Below, in pieces: positions 48,310-56,024 of a stretch of DNA of 64,000 bases. Position numbers and translations under genes: made by a program. The first letter of the stretch is position 1. Each line of letters begins with the position of its first letter. Where the stretch lies: assembly GCF_900156165.1 (NCBI RefSeq), contig NZ_FTMY01000011.1, forward strand, positions 1 through 64,000, read 5' to 3'. The DNA is from Pseudacidovorax sp. RU35E. GTDB lineage: Bacteria > Pseudomonadota > Gammaproteobacteria > Burkholderiales > Burkholderiaceae_C. The notes under the pieces were generated by a model. It had not been told where the DNA came from, ran no database searches, and saw only the letters and a list, made by a program, of their open reading frames with translations.

Positions 48310-49248
48310 ATGTCCGCCAAGATTCCCCTTCTCGTCCTCAACCAGCAGACCCCCGAACACCAGCAGCAGATCGGCGCCGTCTATGACCTCGTCTATGCGC
48401 CCACGCCGGCCGAACGTGCGGCGGCCATCGCCAGCCGGGGCCGCGACTTCCGCGCCGTGCTCACCATCGGCACCGTAGGCCTCACGCCCGACGAGATCGC
48501 GGCCATGCCGGCGCTTGAGCTGGTGTGCTGCATGGGCGTGGGCTACGAGGGACTGCCCATGGACGCGCTGCGTGCGCGCGGCATCGTCACGGCCAATGGC
48601 GCGGGCACCAACGACAGCACGGTCGCCGACCATGCCTTCGGCCTGATCCTGGCCATCGTGCGCCGCATTCCCGAGCGCGACCGGCTGTGCCGCGAGGGCG
48701 TGTGGCGTGACGTGCTGACCATGCCCCCGCAGCTCGAAGGCCGGCGCCTGGGCATCTTCGGGATGGGTGCCATCGGTGCCAAGCTGGCGCGCCGCGCGGC
48801 CGGCTTCGACATGCCGGTGGGCTACCACAACCGCAAGCCGGTCGAAGGCTCGCCTCACCGCTACTTCGACGATCTGGTCGAGCTCGCGCGCTGGTGCGAC
48901 GTGCTGGTGTGCGCCGCGCCCGGCGGCGCGGCCACGCGGCACAAGGTGAATGCGCAGGTGCTGCAGGCGCTGGGCCCGCAGGGCTACCTGGTCAACGTGG
49001 GCCGCGGCAGCCTGGTCGATACCGAAGCGCTGGCCGAGGCCCTGCGCAGCGAGACCATCGCCGGTGCCGCGCTCGACGTGTACGAGAGCGAACCCCAGCG
49101 GCCCGAGCCGCTGGTGGGCCTTGCCAACATCGTCCTCTCGCCCCACATGGCGGGCTGGTCGCCCGAGGCCGTGCAATGCAGCGTGGACCGCTTCATGGCC
49201 AATGCCGAAGGCCACTTCGCAGGGCGCGGGGTGGTGTCGCCGATCTGA
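48310..49248 (+). CDS. D-isomer-specific 2-hydroxyacid dehydrogenase
   Basis: A 312-residue NAD(P)-dependent enzyme, probably a glyoxylate/hydroxypyruvate reductase. The nucleotide-binding LGIFGMGAIGAKLARRA lies mid-protein. Catalytic Arg is in VNVGRGSLVDTEAL, Glu in DVYESEPQRPEPL, and His in LSPHMAGWSPEA. The N-terminal VCCMGVGYEGLPMDAL forms the substrate domain. NADPH or NADH preference is uncertain: HNRKPVEG follows the second strand, where Arg favours NADP. It is 27 bases after the ABC gene and 14 bases before the sheath gene. Confidence 0.92.
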   Translation: MSAKIPLLVLNQQTPEHQQQIGAVYDLVYAPTPAERAAAIASRGRDFRAVLTIGTVGLTPDEIAAMPALELVCCMGVGYEGLPMDALRARGIVTANGAGTNDSTVADHAFGLILAIVRRIPERDRLCREGVWRDVLTMPPQLEGRRLGIFGMGAIGAKLARRAAGFDMPVGYHNRKPVEGSPHRYFDDLVELARWCDVLVCAAPGGAATRHKVNAQVLQALGPQGYLVNVGRGSLVDTEALAEALRSETIAGAALDVYESEPQRPEPLVGLANIVLSPHMAGWSPEAVQCSVDRFMANAEGHFAGRGVVSPI

Positions 49249-49262
49249 TTCAGGAGGCGCAG

Positions 49263-50771
49263 ATGGCCGTGATGAAGACGCCCGGCGTGTACATCGTCGA
49301 GAAGAACGCCTTTCCGAATGCGGTCGTGGAGGTCGCCACCGCCGTGCCGGCATTCATCGGCTACACCGCGAAGGCAGACCACGCCGGCCGCGATCTGCAG
49401 GGCAAGCCCTGGCGAATCACGAGCTTGGCCGAATTCGAGGCCTCGTTCGGGGGGCCGCCGCAGCCGCGCTTCCAGCTGCAGGTCGTGGACGATCTGGTCG
49501 CCGACCCGCCACCGACCGAGGACATGCGCAGGCCGCGCACCCAGGTCAGCGAGTTCGAGCACCAGGGCCGGCACTACCGCCTCATGCGGGAGCCGGGCCG
49601 TGCGGGCAACCGCTATCTGCTGCACCAGGCCATGCGCCTCTTTTTCGCCAACGGTGGAGGGCCGTGCTACGTCGTAAGCGTGGGCCTGTACGGCGATGCG
49701 GCGAACGCGCCGGAGATCGAGGCCGGCGACGATGTCCAAGGCCTGCTCGCCGGGCTGACAGCGTTGGAAAAGGAGCAGGAGCCGACCCTGGTCGTGGTGC
49801 CTGACGCGGTCCTGCTGTCCCGGGACGACTGCGCCGCGGTCCAGACAGCGATGCTCAGGCACTGTGGCGATGTGATGCGCAATCGCTTCGCCATCCTGGA
49901 TGTGTGGGCAGGTGACCTGGGCCGGCAGCATCCGGCCGGCGACTGCATCGCGGGCTTTCGCGACGCCATCGGGACCCACCAGTGTCTCCAGTACGGTGCG
50001 GCCTATTACCCGTGGCTGCACACAACGGTGCTGGAGTCCGGCGAGTTCCGTCGCACGATGGTGCAGAGCGACATCGATCTGTCTGCGCTCATTGCCAATG
50101 AGCTGGCGCGGGATACGTGCCCGGTCGACGAGGCGCTGCTGGCCAAGAGCGCGTTCTACGTCCGGCTGCGCGACCAGGCGCTGCGGCTGATGAACCTGAT
50201 GCCGCCCTCGGCGGCAATGGCCGGCCTGTACACCCTGGTCGACAGCACGCGCGGGGTGTGGAAGGCGCCGGCGAACATCGCTGTCAACGAGGTGACCGAA
50301 CCGGCGGTGGCCCTCTCGCAGGACGAGCAGGAGGACCTCAACGTCGGCACCCAGGGCAAGAGCGTCAATGCCATCCGCAGTTTCACGGGCGAGGACGTGC
50401 TGGTCTGGGGCGCACGCACCCTCGACGGCAACAGCGCCGACTGGCGCTACGTCAACGTGCGGCGCACGCTGATCATGATCGAGGAGAGCTTCAGGCTTGC
50501 CTGCAAGGCACTGGTGTTCGAGCCCAACACGGCGGCCACCTGGACGACCGCCCGAGCCATGCTCACCCAGTACCTTGCCAGCGTGTGGAAGCGCGGTGGC
50601 CTGGCCGGCGCCACGGCCGAGGACGCATTCAGCGTGCATGTGGGAGTGGGGCAGACGATGACGCCCGAGGACATCCTCGAAGGGATCATGCGCATCACGG
50701 TTCTTGTTGCGCCCACCCGGCCGGCCGAATTCATCGAGATCACCTTTCACCAGCAGATGCAGAAGTCCTGA
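49263..50771 (+). CDS. Orphan contractile tail sheath protein (eCIS/phage type)
   Basis: A 502-residue sheath protein. The N-terminus MKTPGVYIVEKNAFPN followed by VATAVPAFIGYT is the classic sheath start, and PWRITSLAEFEASFGG completes it. The C-terminal sheath domain starts near residue 380 (WGARTL..., DWRYVNVRRTLIMIEESF) and ends RPAEFIEITFHQQMQKS, the pattern of extracellular contractile injection system and tailocin sheaths. AGGAGG lies five bases before ATG 49263. In known machines, sheath subunits polymerise around a tube and contract. No tube, baseplate, spike, collar, ATPase or toxin gene is in this window. It sits directly behind a dehydrogenase gene and could be co-transcribed with it. 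Confidence 0.92.
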   Translation: MAVMKTPGVYIVEKNAFPNAVVEVATAVPAFIGYTAKADHAGRDLQGKPWRITSLAEFEASFGGPPQPRFQLQVVDDLVADPPPTEDMRRPRTQVSEFEHQGRHYRLMREPGRAGNRYLLHQAMRLFFANGGGPCYVVSVGLYGDAANAPEIEAGDDVQGLLAGLTALEKEQEPTLVVVPDAVLLSRDDCAAVQTAMLRHCGDVMRNRFAILDVWAGDLGRQHPAGDCIAGFRDAIGTHQCLQYGAAYYPWLHTTVLESGEFRRTMVQSDIDLSALIANELARDTCPVDEALLAKSAFYVRLRDQALRLMNLMPPSAAMAGLYTLVDSTRGVWKAPANIAVNEVTEPAVALSQDEQEDLNVGTQGKSVNAIRSFTGEDVLVWGARTLDGNSADWRYVNVRRTLIMIEESFRLACKALVFEPNTAATWTTARAMLTQYLASVWKRGGLAGATAEDAFSVHVGVGQTMTPEDILEGIMRITVLVAPTRPAEFIEITFHQQMQKS

Positions 50772-50825
50772 CCTCGCGGCGGCGGCGTCTCGGTGGCGGC
50801 GGCGGCGGCAGACCCATGCCGGCGA

Positions 50826-52274
50826 TCAGATCGATTCGAGCACTGGGGGGCGCATCGCCGACCACGGGCAGGCCTGGTCGAAGGCATGGCCCAGCTGCAG
50901 GACGGCCAGGTCCGCATTGGCCGGGCCCGCCAGCTGCAGGCCCATCGGCAGGCCGTGCGGACCGAAGCCTGCGCGCACATTGAGCGTGGGCAGCCCGGCC
51001 AGCGTGAAGGGCGTGACGATCTCCATCCAGTGGTGGTAGGTCTGGCTTTTCACACCCGCCACCTCGTCGGGCCAGTGCAGGTCGGCGTCGAAGGGAAAGA
51101 CCTGCGCCGTCGGCGCCACCACGGCATCGAAGCGCTCGAAGAGCCGCACGAAGGCGCGGTAGACGTTCGAGCGCCAGATCGAGGCCTGGTAGAGCGAGGC
51201 GGCATCGAGGTGGCGGGCCTGTTCGATTTCCCACAGCGCCTCGGGCTTGATGCGCGCATGGTTGCGCGGATCGGCCGCCAGCGCGCCCAGCTTGCCGCCC
51301 ACCAGCAGCTGGCGCAGCCGCAGCCAGGCCTGCCAGTTCTGCTCGCGCGGCACGTCGAGCTGGCAGGCTTCGAGCTCGCAGCCCAGCGTGCGGAAGACGT
51401 CCAGCGCCTGCTCGCAGGTGGCCATCACCGTCGGGTCCACCGGCAGGTCGGGCCAGAGGCTGCCCAGCCAGCCGATGCGCCGACCCTTCACTTCGGTGCG
51501 CAGGTCGAGCGCATCGGCATCGGGCAGCGCCTGCGGCAGCGAGAGCGGCACGCGCGCGTCGACGCCGGCCTGCACGCACAGCATGCGCGCAGCGTCCTCC
51601 ACCGTGCGGGCCATGGGGCCCTCGGTTCCCAGCTGCTGGAAGAACAGGTCCTCGTCCGGCGAGCCCGGCACGCGCCCGCGCGAAGGCCGGAAGCCGATGA
51701 CGTTGTTGAAGGCCGCGGGGTTGCGCAGCGAACCCATCATGTCGCTGCCGTCGGCCACCGGCAGCATGCCCAGGGCCAATGCCACCGCTGCGCCGCCGCT
51801 GCTGCCCCCGGCCGACTTGCGGTCGTCCCAGGCATTGCGGGTGGTGCCGAAGACGGTGTTGTAGGTGTGCGAGCCCAGGCCGAACTCGGGCGTGTTGCTC
51901 TTGCCGATGACGATGGCGCCGGCGGCCCGGGCCCGGGCCACGTGCAGGCTGTCATGGCGCGCCGGGCTTTTCGGTGCCAGCGGCGAGCCCATGGAGGTGG
52001 GCAGGCCGGCGGCGTGGCTCAGGTCCTTCACCGCCAGCGGAAAGCCGTGCATCCAGCCCAGGCGCTCGCCGCGCGCGAGCTGGGCATCGCGTGCATCGGC
52101 CTCGGCCAGCAGCGTGTCGGCATCGCGCAGCGAGACCAGGGCATTGAAGCGCGGGTTGAGCGCGTCGATGCGCGCCAGCGTGGCCTGCATCAGTTCGCGG
52201 CACGAGAGGCTGCGCTCGCCGATGCGTCGCGAGAGGGTGGTGGCGTCGAGGGCAAGCAGGTCGGCAGAGGTCAT
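50826..52274 (-). CDS. Amidase (amidase signature family)
   Basis: A 482-residue enzyme. The catalytic triad is complete: Lys83 in LAVKDLSH, cis-Ser158 in SAGGSSGGAAV and nucleophile Ser182 in MMGSLRNPAAF. PSRGRVPGSP follows. Such amidases hydrolyse aliphatic or aryl amides, or act like 6-aminohexanoate-cyclic-dimer hydrolases; the specific substrate is unknown. The start MTSADLLALDATTL is used; further upstream the frame would run into the divergent LysR promoter. It diverges from the HypT-like LysR gene, its possible regulator. It converges with the sheath gene. Confidence 0.9.
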   Translation of the reverse strand: MTSADLLALDATTLSRRIGERSLSCRELMQATLARIDALNPRFNALVSLRDADTLLAEADARDAQLARGERLGWMHGFPLAVKDLSHAAGLPTSMGSPLAPKSPARHDSLHVARARAAGAIVIGKSNTPEFGLGSHTYNTVFGTTRNAWDDRKSAGGSSGGAAVALALGMLPVADGSDMMGSLRNPAAFNNVIGFRPSRGRVPGSPDEDLFFQQLGTEGPMARTVEDAARMLCVQAGVDARVPLSLPQALPDADALDLRTEVKGRRIGWLGSLWPDLPVDPTVMATCEQALDVFRTLGCELEACQLDVPREQNWQAWLRLRQLLVGGKLGALAADPRNHARIKPEALWEIEQARHLDAASLYQASIWRSNVYRAFVRLFERFDAVVAPTAQVFPFDADLHWPDEVAGVKSQTYHHWMEIVTPFTLAGLPTLNVRAGFGPHGLPMGLQLAGPANADLAVLQLGHAFDQACPWSAMRPPVLESI

Positions 52275-53596: not shown

Positions 53597-54493
53597 ATGA
53601 AGAAGCAACTCACGCTCATCGCCATCGCGGCACTCGCCACCAGCGCAGCGTTCGCGCAGGCCACCGACACCCTGGCAAAGATCAAGGAGCGCGGTGCGGT
53701 CAACCTCGGCGTGCGCGATTCGTCCGGCCTGGCCTTCACGCTCGGCGGCGGCAAGTACGTCGGCTTCCACACCGAAATGGCCGAGAACATCATCAAGGAC
53801 ATCGGCAAGGACCTGGGCAAGCCCCTGACCATCAACTACCAGGTCATCACCTCGCAGAACCGCGTGCCCCTGGTGCAGAACGGCACCATCGACTTCGAGT
53901 GCGGCTCCACCACCAACAACACCGCGCGCCAGAAGGACGTCGACTTCGCCTACACGACCTACGTGGAGGAAGTCCGCATCCTCACCAAGGCCAACTCCGG
54001 CATCAACGGCATCGCCGATCTGAAGGGCAAGACCGTCGCCACGACCACGGGCACCACCTCGGTTCAGACGCTGCGCAAGAACAAGCGCGCCGAGGGCATC
54101 GACTTCAAGGAAGTCATGGGCAAGGACCACGCAGACAGCTTCCTGCTGCTCGAATCGGGCCGCGCCGACGCCTTCGTGATGGACGGCTCCATCCTGGCTG
54201 CCAACGCCGCCAAGTCGAAGAGCCCGAAGGACTTCAAGCTCGTCGGTGAAGTGCTGTCCGTCGAGCCGATCGCCTGCATGCTGCCCAAGGGCGACGCCAA
54301 GCTGAAGAAGGCTGTCGACGACAGCATCGTTCGCCAGATCAAGGATGGCTCGCTGGCCAAGCTGTACGACAAGTGGTTCATGCAGCCGATCCCGCCGAAC
54401 AACGTCAACCTGAACATGCCCGCTTCCGAAAGCACCAAGGACGCCTGGGCCCATCCGAACGACAAGCCGATGGAGGCCTACGCCAACAAGTAA
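53597..54493 (+). CDS. gltI: Glutamate/aspartate ABC transporter, periplasmic binding protein
   Basis: A 298-residue binding protein. The signal peptide MKKQLTLIAIAALATSAAFA is cleaved before QATDTL. SBP_bac_3 motifs follow: LAKIKERGAVNLGVRDSSG, ECGSTTNNTARQKDVDFAYT (the segment that marks GltI/AatJ) and GKTVATTTGTTSVQTLRK. The family binds Glu/Asp, also Gln. It is first in a four-gene operon. A terminator-like hairpin directly after it should make it more abundant than the membrane parts. The start ATG has AAGGA six bases upstream. Confidence 0.95.
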   Translation: MKKQLTLIAIAALATSAAFAQATDTLAKIKERGAVNLGVRDSSGLAFTLGGGKYVGFHTEMAENIIKDIGKDLGKPLTINYQVITSQNRVPLVQNGTIDFECGSTTNNTARQKDVDFAYTTYVEEVRILTKANSGINGIADLKGKTVATTTGTTSVQTLRKNKRAEGIDFKEVMGKDHADSFLLLESGRADAFVMDGSILAANAAKSKSPKDFKLVGEVLSVEPIACMLPKGDAKLKKAVDDSIVRQIKDGSLAKLYDKWFMQPIPPNNVNLNMPASESTKDAWAHPNDKPMEAYANK

Positions 54494-54516
54494 GGTCGCA
54501 GTCGACCTCGATAGCC

Positions 54517-54551
54517 AAGCCCGCGCGGCGCGCCTGCCGACGCGGGCTTTT
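54517..54551 (+). terminator. Partial terminator between gltI and gltJ
   Basis: AAGCCCGCG (54517-54525) pairs with CGCGGGCTT (54541-54549) around a 15-base loop, followed by TT. The weak T-run suggests partial read-through into gltJKL, giving more binding protein than permease, or protection of the gltI mRNA end. Confidence 0.75.
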
Positions 54552-54595
54552 CGATGGAATGAGCGTGGGGCCTGACCCGCGGAAGAGGAGGATGG

Positions 54596-55354
54596 ATGCT
54601 GAGCCTGGATATGTCGGTTTTCTGCCAGGACACGCTGACCAATGAGGCGGTCGCCGGCTGTTTTGCACACGGGCGCGATCAGACCTATCTGCAGTGGATG
54701 CTCAATGCCTGGGGCTGGACCGTGAGCGTGGCGCTCGCGGCCCTGCTGCTGGCGCTGGTGGTCGGTTCGATCATCGGCACCTTGCGTACCCTGCCGGACA
54801 GTCCCTGGCTGGTGCGCTTCGGCAATGCGTGGGTGGAGCTGTTCCGCAACATCCCGCTGCTGGTGCAGGTGTTCATCTGGTACTTCGTGCTGCCCAAGAT
54901 GATTCCGGCGATGCGCGACCTGCCGCCGCTGGTGCTGGTGGTGTGCGCACTCGGTTTCTTCACGTCGGCGCGGATTGCCGAGCAGCTGCGTTCGGGCATC
55001 CAGGCGCTGCCGCGCGGCCAGCGCTATGCGGGCATGGCGGTGGGCTTCACCACCTTCCAGTACTACCGCTTCGTGCTGCTGCCGATGGCCTACCGGATCA
55101 TCATGCCGCCGCTGACCAGCGAGTCGATGAACATCTTCAAGAACTCCTCCGTCGCCTTCGCGGTGTCGATCCCCGAGCTCACGCAGTTCTACCTGCAGGC
55201 GGGCGAGGAGACCTCGGCCCAGATCCCGATCTACGTCGGGGTCGTCATCCTCTATGTCATCAGCGCCATGCTGATCAACCGCATCATGACTTTCATCGAG
55301 CGCAGGATCCGCGTGCCGGGCTTCGTGGCCTCGGGCGGAACGGGAGGCCACTGA
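54596..55354 (+). CDS. gltJ: Glutamate/aspartate ABC transporter permease
   Basis: A 252-residue HisM-type permease with about five membrane segments (WTVSVALAALLLALVVGSII, LPPLVLVVCALGFFTSARIA and others). The EAA-type coupling loop is EQLRSGIQALPRGQRYAGMA. The NIFKNSSVAFAVSIPEL segment is typical of GltJ. It pairs with gltK. The TG of its stop region is immediately followed by the gltK ATG (one base between). An ATG at residue 6 would be an alternative start. Confidence 0.94.
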   Translation: MLSLDMSVFCQDTLTNEAVAGCFAHGRDQTYLQWMLNAWGWTVSVALAALLLALVVGSIIGTLRTLPDSPWLVRFGNAWVELFRNIPLLVQVFIWYFVLPKMIPAMRDLPPLVLVVCALGFFTSARIAEQLRSGIQALPRGQRYAGMAVGFTTFQYYRFVLLPMAYRIIMPPLTSESMNIFKNSSVAFAVSIPELTQFYLQAGEETSAQIPIYVGVVILYVISAMLINRIMTFIERRIRVPGFVASGGTGGH

Positions 55355-55355
55355 C

Positions 55356-56024
55356 ATGCTGGGCCTCGACTTTTCCTTCTACAGCTGGAGCCTCATCAGC
55401 ACCTATGTGCTGAAGGGCCTGTACTTCAGCGTGATGCTCACCGTGGTGGCCACGCTGGGCGGCATCTTCTTCGGCACGCTGCTGGCGCTCATGCGGCTGT
55501 CGGGCAAGAAGTGGCTGGACTTCCCGGCGGCGGTGTACGTCAACGGCATGCGTTCGGTGCCGCTGGTGATGGTGATCCTGGGCTTCTTCCTGCTGGTGCC
55601 GTTCGTCATCGGCCGGCCCATCGGTGCCGAGACCTCGGCCATCGTCACCTTCATCTGCTTCGAGGCCGCCTACTTCTCGGAGATCATGCGCGCCGGCATC
55701 CAGTCGATCCCGCGCGGCCAGGTGTTCGCGGGCATGGCGGTGGGCATGACCTACAAGCAGAACATGACACTGGTGATCCTGCCGCAGGCCTTCCGCAACA
55801 TGCTGCCGGTGCTGCTCACGCAGACCATCATCCTGTTCCAGGACACCTCGCTGGTGTATGCCATCGGTGCCTACGACCTGCTCAAGGGCTTCGAGACGGC
55901 AGGCAAGAACTTCGGCCGCCCCGAAGAGGCCTACCTCCTGGCCGCCGTCGTCTATTTCGTCCTCTGCTATTCGCTGTCCTACATGGTCAAGCGACTGCAC
56001 AAGAAAATCGCCATCATCCGATGA
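55356..56024 (+). CDS. gltK: Glutamate/aspartate ABC transporter permease
   Basis: A 222-residue HisM-type permease with about five membrane segments (GLYFSVMLTVVATLGGIFFG, PLVMVILGFFLLVPFVIG and others). The coupling loop is MRAGIQSIPRGQVFAGMAVG, and QTIILFQDTSLVYAIGAYDL is the GltK-like segment. It forms the channel with GltJ. It starts one base after the gltJ stop and precedes the ATPase by 12 bases, with AAGGGG as ribosome site. Confidence 0.94.
   Translation: MLGLDFSFYSWSLISTYVLKGLYFSVMLTVVATLGGIFFGTLLALMRLSGKKWLDFPAAVYVNGMRSVPLVMVILGFFLLVPFVIGRPIGAETSAIVTFICFEAAYFSEIMRAGIQSIPRGQVFAGMAVGMTYKQNMTLVILPQAFRNMLPVLLTQTIILFQDTSLVYAIGAYDLLKGFETAGKNFGRPEEAYLLAAVVYFVLCYSLSYMVKRLHKKIAIIR

What the first reader, a model, noticed from the sequence alone, without database searches (positions are those of the whole stretch)
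49263..50771. Orphan contractile sheath gene with no injection-system partners
A complete 502-residue sheath gene with both conserved ends and a strong AGGAGG site stands between a dehydrogenase and an amidase. No tube, baseplate, spike, terminator, ATPase or toxin gene is within the window (49 kb upstream and 13 kb downstream). Known eCIS, R-type and phage loci keep sheath with tube. It may be a remnant, a part supplied to a locus elsewhere, or a sheath-fold protein with a new job. The intact frame argues against simple decay.
Basis: partly seen in the sequence, partly recalled or inferred. Interest (0 to 1): 0.72.

Follow-up and report, generated by a model that had tools for sequence, protein, structure and literature searches.

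The report
Lone, tube-free injection-system sheath gene
A bacterium keeps an intact gene for the contracting outer sleeve of a molecular syringe although no needle gene was found in its genome; selection still protects the sleeve while its probable needle-gripping part drifts, which suggests the sleeve protein now works alone.

Summary
In detail: 49263-50771 (+) is an intact 502-codon eCIS sheath gene between a 2-hydroxyacid dehydrogenase and an amidase. Genome-wide there is one sheath, no PF06841 tube and no PF19266 CIS_tube; the single gp25 hit lies in a T6SS cluster.

It is not an assembly gap or one-off relic. Two congeners (G308, G302; Pseudacidovorax) carry orthologues at the same spot, also without PF06841. 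In eight others the spot holds an M81/MlrC peptidase ORF; G308 has both. The three sheaths form one clade, are about 70% identical, frame-intact and under purifying selection (omega 0.36-0.39). Complete-eCIS sheath pairs at similar dS gave 0.17, 0.32 and 0.49, so omega alone does not show relaxation.

Against 88 sheaths with a tube gene beside them, the putative tube-attachment helix (416-446) is unusually fast in all three and in an independent tube-less orphan (Arsukibacterium), but not in a Rubrivivax orphan whose genome holds a tube. Handshake arms are mostly kept. The helix assignment is inferred and the window partly post hoc.

Best reading: a sheath that outlived its machine and is retained as a stand-alone, probably self-assembling protein; its role is unshown. 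Slow decay is the main rival.

The parts
49263..50771 (+). stand-alone eCIS-type sheath gene, 502 codons plus stop
49252..49257 (+). AGGAGG ribosome-binding site, 5 nt before the ATG and 4 nt after the dehydrogenase stop codon; congener G302 has no such site in its spacer
49263..49337 (+). codons 1-25, N-terminal (handshake) arm; 20 of 21 eCIS-invariant columns kept
   Evidence: arm role from PMC6088184 and PMC8894135 passages
49740..50423 (+). Phage_sheath_1 (PF04984) match, codons 160-387
50433..50753 (+). Phage_sheath_1C (PF17482) match, codons 391-497
50508..50600 (+). codons 416-446, putative tube-attachment helix (position inferred), fast in tube-less orphans
   Evidence: helix role from PMC6088184, PMC8894135 and PMC5924787 passages
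50703..50768 (+). codons 481-502, C-terminal arm, rate as in controls
   Evidence: z 0.6
48310..49248 (+). D-2-hydroxyacid dehydrogenase, left flank of the insertion site
50826..52274 (-). amidase, right flank of the insertion site

Best explanation
The gene is a sheath of the AlgoCIS/Anabaena-tCIS side of the eCIS family that lost its injection machine and has been kept as a stand-alone protein. Shown: it is intact; no gp19-type tube, CIS_tube or second sheath was found in the genome; it sits at one chromosomal site in three congeneric species; it diverges fast but under purifying selection; the putative tube-contact helix changes faster than in any of 88 tube-linked sheaths, while the arms that join sheath subunits to one another are largely kept. 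Inferred: the protein still folds and self-associates through the handshake arms into a tube-free sheath polymer (a polysheath) or smaller ring in the cytoplasm, made by read-through from the dehydrogenase gene 14 nt upstream, and that polymer or its subunit, not an injection, is what is selected. The biological role of such a polymer is not shown.
For: Same site in G000, G308 and G302, flanking proteins mostly 90-98% identical, sheath about 70%. Monophyletic, SH-aLRT 99, sister to the sheath of a complete Rubrivivax-MAG locus, 96. Omega 0.356, 0.387, 0.358, bootstrap limits 0.27-0.52. Neutral simulation at branch length 0.10 leaves a frame open in 3.3% of runs, at 0.27 in 0 of 300. Helix window relative rate: 1.11, 1.30, 1.17 in the three and 1.23 in Arsukibacterium L143, maximum of 88 controls 0.84; Rubrivivax L148, whose genome has a tube, 0.21. 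The helix window is the top scan window in the Pseudacidovorax trio and, separately, in L143. L143 branch omega 0.10-0.15 against 0.04 on the sister branches. Sheath proteins of T4 and phiKZ assemble into polysheaths without tube or baseplate (PMC6088184, passage).
Against: The helix position is inferred, and the window was partly picked from earlier results. Clustering of invariant-site losses along the protein is not significant (p 0.35) and the overlap of losses between the trio and L143 is weak (p 0.09). Single controls reach scan peaks up to z 5.1 elsewhere, so peak height alone proves nothing. Arms are not perfectly kept: G302 N-arm z 3.8, L143 C-arm z 2.5. Three of six near species lack the gene, so it is dispensable. 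Diffocin sheath did not self-assemble when purified. Arsukibacterium has a second, distant sheath-like gene that I did not examine, and its completeness is not given.
Confidence: 0.48

Rival explanations
1. Slowly decaying relic: the last piece of a lost eCIS, no longer useful, not yet broken.
For: All other eCIS genes searched for are gone; the gene is absent from three near relatives; it keeps only 177 of 194 eCIS-invariant columns (91%), the two orthologues 179 and 173, while 24 of 25 listed controls keep 96-99.5%; the loosened helix would fit loss of function.
Against: Omega well under 1, three open frames, in-frame indels, neutral expectation of several stops per branch. If the alleles diverged before the gene became lone, this weakens; the shared site and the shared changes N436 and F437 argue that they diverged after.
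Confidence: 0.3
2. Split system: the sheath serves a tube and baseplate encoded elsewhere or on a mobile element in trans.
For: Such splits exist: in the same genus a second kind of sheath lies apart from a tube gene in 6 genomes, and the Rubrivivax MAG L148 has its tube on another contig. Full-length relatives occur on plasmids, best 49.6% identical.
Against: No PF06841 tube in G000, G302 or G308, assemblies rated 99-100% complete; the helix that should hold a tube is the part that drifts. P2-type tubes, Pvc16, Afp11 and ATPase were not searched genome-wide.
Confidence: 0.08
3. Decoy or poison subunit that co-assembles with sheaths of invading contractile phages or other particles and jams them.
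For: Fast evolution with kept subunit-subunit arms and an altered tube face would fit a dominant-negative subunit.
Against: Phage sheaths are remote: 245 phage records match, none over 80% of the length, all under 60% identity; no match in the viral contigs with the patterns used; no hit in the PADLOC models; no defence gene was noticed beside it.
Confidence: 0.08
4. Repeated allele import: unrelated lone sheaths entered the same site separately, so the high divergence is not evolution in place.
For: Sheath dS 0.53-0.56 exceeds most flanks (0.09-0.33) with sharp steps at the gene ends.
Against: The three form one clade with shared derived changes and all three distances are alike. Exchange of alleles within the genus stays possible and would not change the main reading.
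Confidence: 0.06

Closest known systems
9r9h chain T, 'Phage tail sheath family protein' (PDB)
   Same: aligned end to end, E 2.2e-166 by phmmer; same length class (519 residues) and both terminal arms
   Different: solved as part of a multi-chain entry (39 chains over 4 entries carry this sequence); source organism and paper not found in the searches made; no lone-gene context known to me
AlgoCIS sheath Alg2 (7adz) and Anabaena tCIS sheath All3325 (7b5h)
   Same: same sheath domains and ends, E 3e-101 and 1.5e-90
   Different: belong to full loci with tube, cap, baseplate (PMC8894135, PMC8894136, passages)
sheath of the Rubrivivax MAG-217 eCIS locus (L144)
   Same: nearest tube-linked relative in the tree (96), 65% identical to the window protein over aligned columns
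   Different: lies in a locus where all nine role profiles ring
polysheaths of phages T4 and phiKZ
   Same: what the best explanation would look like: sheath polymer without tube (PMC6088184, passage)
   Different: an assembly of phage sheath proteins reported without tube or baseplate present, not a retained lone gene

Membership tests
eCIS (complete system) | sheath of the eCIS kind | tested here: met
eCIS (complete system) | inner tube (Phage_T4_gp19) in the locus or genome | tested here: not met
eCIS (complete system) | tube initiator of the CIS_tube family | tested here: not met
eCIS (complete system) | Pvc16-type cap, Afp11, spike hub beside the sheath | tested here: not met
   absent from the whole contig; not searched in the rest of the genome
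eCIS (complete system) | gp25 baseplate protein of its own | tested here: not met
   one gp25 in the genome, in a cluster with ClpV- and TssF-like genes
eCIS (complete system) | AAA ATPase (Afp15-like) | not tested
   no search made
contractile phage or R-type particle | sheath nearer to phage sheaths, phage genes around | tested here: not met
   neighbours are metabolic genes
T6SS sheath (TssB/TssC) | two-part sheath inside a T6SS locus | tested here: not met
   one-piece sheath of Pfam Phage_sheath_1/1C; the T6SS-like cluster is on another contig (L223)
tube-free polysheath former | self-assembly without tube | not testable with these tools
   only arm conservation was tested

The most novel reading that the evidence does not exclude
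Tube-free sheaths are a recurrent class: several bacterial lineages have independently freed an eCIS sheath from its needle, let the tube-gripping helix go, and kept the subunit-to-subunit arms, making a solitary sheath polymer with a job inside the cell that is not injection.
Probability: 0.25. Interest if true: 0.78.

Novelty: new variant of a known kind. Interest (0 to 1): 0.5.

Why it matters
Sheaths are thought of only as springs for a tube. A sheath kept by selection in genomes with no tube found, with the tube face drifting and the joints largely held, would show that the polymer itself can be useful and gives a natural separation of the two functions that can be tested by cryo-EM. It also warns surveys that define eCIS by clusters of core genes (Geller 2021, PMC8213781, asks for at least ten; passages): lone sheaths fall outside them by design.

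Tried and rejected
Assembly gap: rejected; the gene lies mid-contig (202,231 bases) and the same arrangement recurs in G302 and in G308 (there with mlrC kept). Phage remnant: no phage gene noticed around, no viral-contig match with the patterns used. Mobile insertion scars: no tRNA in the window; repeats near the gene are short and imperfect. Foreign composition: GC3 0.88 against a window mean of 0.91, sd 0.045. Defence: no PADLOC hit. NCBIfam gave no family for the sheath. Papers that did not help place the helix: PMC10457771 and PMC10996793 (passages). Literature searches for lone sheaths gave nothing on the subject among the rows listed, in the held open-licence library only.

Rows dropped: of 100 sheath rows in the tree, six (G007 orphan, fam_L045-L048, L118) were left out of the conservation alignment for being too distant; L147 (441 aa, 79.9% of invariants kept, the one low control) was left out. 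Two control pairs are duplicates of one record (L096 and fam_L036, L106 and fam_L039), and controls are related, so 88 is not a count of independent cases. Sheath-with-tube tallies at family level were made by hand from the lists.

Full report
What is there. Window 49263-50771 (+) encodes 502 residues without interruption. AGGAGG stands 5 nt before the ATG and the dehydrogenase gene ends 14 nt upstream. Pfam gives Phage_sheath_1 and Phage_sheath_1C above their cut-offs. PHROGs gives tail-sheath families. The nearest solved chain is 9r9h_T over the whole length, then the AlgoCIS and Anabaena sheaths. Composition is that of the host (GC3 0.88, window mean 0.91). The surroundings are metabolic genes.

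Partners. Only one PF04984 match lies in the 5.69-Mb genome, rated 100% complete. PF06841 tube: no match. PF19266 CIS_tube: no match. gp25: one match in each of several congeners and up to three in others, 15 of 15 genomes; the window genome's copy is in a cluster with ClpV- and TssF-like genes (named by eye), and the three G302 copies also lie beside T6SS-type genes by eye. Nine role profiles built from relatives find nothing but the sheath in the window and, on the rest of the contig, one gp25-like scrap at E 0.015; two complete loci ring for all nine. Pvc16, Afp11, the ATPase and P2-type tubes were not searched genome-wide.

The site in relatives. Of 15 genomes of the genus, 10 match the protein: three closely (G000, G308, G302) and seven only in the C-terminal part at 37-42%. 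One of the close ones is recorded as an uncultured Pseudacidovorax (L069). In G308 and G302 the gene sits between the same neighbours as here. In eight others (G307, G304, G177, G306, G255, G071, G299, G305) an M81/MlrC peptidase ORF follows the dehydrogenase (Pfam checked for G307 only); in G299 the amidase was not found. G308 has peptidase and sheath side by side; G000 and G302 have the sheath alone. In G301 dehydrogenase and amidase abut, G309 and G300 have neither peptidase-sized gap nor amidase, and G303 was not examined there. The simplest history is a sheath set down between peptidase and amidase, with the peptidase gene later lost in two lineages; G307, the nearest by the dehydrogenase DNA (95%), has no sheath, so loss, gain or exchange has happened more than once.

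Selection. Pairwise the three sheaths are 70-71% identical with dS 0.53-0.56, dN 0.195-0.205 and omega 0.356, 0.387, 0.358 (bootstrap limits 0.27-0.52). Seventeen flanking genes have dS 0.09-0.33 except two transporter genes (0.38, 0.60), and omega 0.03-0.30 except one (0.42). So the sheath evolves faster than its neighbours at both kinds of site: faster change, older alleles, or exchange between species. Sheaths of complete loci within genera: six pairs 95-99% identical with omega 0.03-0.22; one pair 87%, omega 0.17 at dS 0.55; one pair 63%, omega 0.49 at dS 0.62 (these two lie far apart in the tree); and a between-genus pair 76%, omega 0.32 at dS 0.61. Omega alone therefore does not prove relaxation, but it is far from 1. 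Neutral simulation gave 2.8, 4.1 and 6.6 stops per branch at lengths 0.10, 0.15 and 0.27, with open frames in 3.3%, 1.7% and 0 of 300 runs. Insertions and deletions between the three are in frame.

Lone sheaths elsewhere. Of the 80 best loci from named genomes, 77 hold a tube and 3 do not: L069 (= G308), L143 (Arsukibacterium tuosuense) and L148 (a Rubrivivax MAG). In the tree the Pseudacidovorax three form one clade (99), sister to the sheath of a complete locus, L144 (96); L143 lies inside the Rheinheimera sheaths and L148 among other Burkholderiales, so lone sheaths arose at least three times there (quick method). G310, the genome of L143, has no PF06841 match; G311, that of L148, has one, on another contig, and no second close sheath: it reads as a split locus. 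In the family sample, 69 of 299 genomes match the sheath; 53 of these have a PF06841 tube and 16 do not; among the 19 with a close sheath (E below 1e-40) two lack it, G000 and G007, the latter a single-contig genome with a 377-residue lone sheath. Several of the 16 have only weak hits and may be phage sheaths.

Which part changed. In an alignment of 89 sheaths with a tube gene in the fetched locus and 5 lone ones, 194 columns are at least 95% constant. The lone ones keep 177 (G000), 179 (G308), 173 (G302), 183 (L143) and 189 (L148); of the 25 controls listed, 24 keep 96-99.5% and one truncated row (L147) 80%. With L147 left out (88 controls), residues 416-446 have a relative rate of 1.11, 1.30, 1.17 and 1.23 in G000, G308, G302 and L143, against a control mean of 0.50, sd 0.17, maximum 0.84; L148 has 0.21. 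The top scan window is 417-447 for the three and 413-443 for L143. Against its nearest kin L120, L143 differs at 8 of 31 sites there and 67 of 516 overall. Arms: near control rate except G302 (N-arm z 3.8) and L143 (C-arm z 2.5). N40 is constant in the 88 and H in four of five lone sheaths as aligned, L148 among them, so this change does not follow tube loss. In passing, tube-less G047 lacks the near-constant Trp of this helix, an observation on one sequence.

What weakens this. The window was suspected, so the trio is not an independent test; L143 is the nearest to one. Clustering of invariant-site losses is not significant (p 0.35), overlap of losses between trio and L143 is p 0.09, and some controls have scan peaks as high elsewhere. 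That 416-446 is the attachment helix is inferred: the papers say that an attachment helix of domain I, near the C-terminus, the last of the long helices (alpha10 in CD1363), holds the tube (passages of PMC8894135, PMC6088184, PMC5924787); residue numbers for this clade were not found.

How it most likely works. Shown: intact frame, no cognate tube found, shared site, purifying selection, drift of the putative tube face, arms mostly kept. Inferred: translation in an operon with the dehydrogenase; folding; self-association by arm exchange into a tube-free polymer, as T4 and phiKZ sheaths do (PMC6088184 passage; the same passage says diffocin sheath does not). Unknown: what the polymer is for.

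Verdict. A real, ordinary-looking eCIS sheath gene in an extraordinary state. New variant of a known kind; interest 0.5.

Noticed in passing
L050 8098-9843, L051, L152-L156; tubes at L194 14711-15292, L196 9412-9993, L197 9276-9800: Seven congeners carry a different, about 580-residue sheath beside an MMR_HSR1-type GTPase gene (7 of 7; AstE/AspA-like gene called on the other side in 5 of 7). Six of these genomes have a gp19-type tube on another contig or distant site; in the three tube loci read (L194, L196, L197) a weak CIS_tube-like gene and a GNAT gene follow the tube: a sheath and tube kept at two separate loci. The seventh (G301) has no PF06841 match.
   Followed up: partly
L158, L160, L161, L162: Comamonadaceae-family loci with two sheath-like and two tube-like genes in alternation, one sheath much longer (up to 977 aa).
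   Followed up: no
L049 9693-10826 (G007): A 377-residue lone sheath between DUF2242 and TonB-receptor genes in a single-contig genome without PF06841.
   Followed up: partly
L159 9778-11421 (G047): A 547-residue lone sheath in a genome without PF06841; the near-constant Trp of the putative attachment helix is replaced.
   Followed up: partly
window 53597-56024: The binding protein and two permeases of an amino-acid-type ABC transporter are only 77-88% identical to G308 while the ATPase gene next to them is 98%: a likely recombined block close to the sheath.
   Followed up: no
window 49249-50825 as compared with G307, G304, G177, G308, G302: The M81/MlrC peptidase gene of the site is missing in G000 and G302, where the sheath starts 14 and 12 nt after the dehydrogenase stop.
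   Followed up: yes
L122: A Nitrosomonadales MAG locus whose eCIS genes look broken up (few role profiles ring over 17 kb).
   Followed up: no
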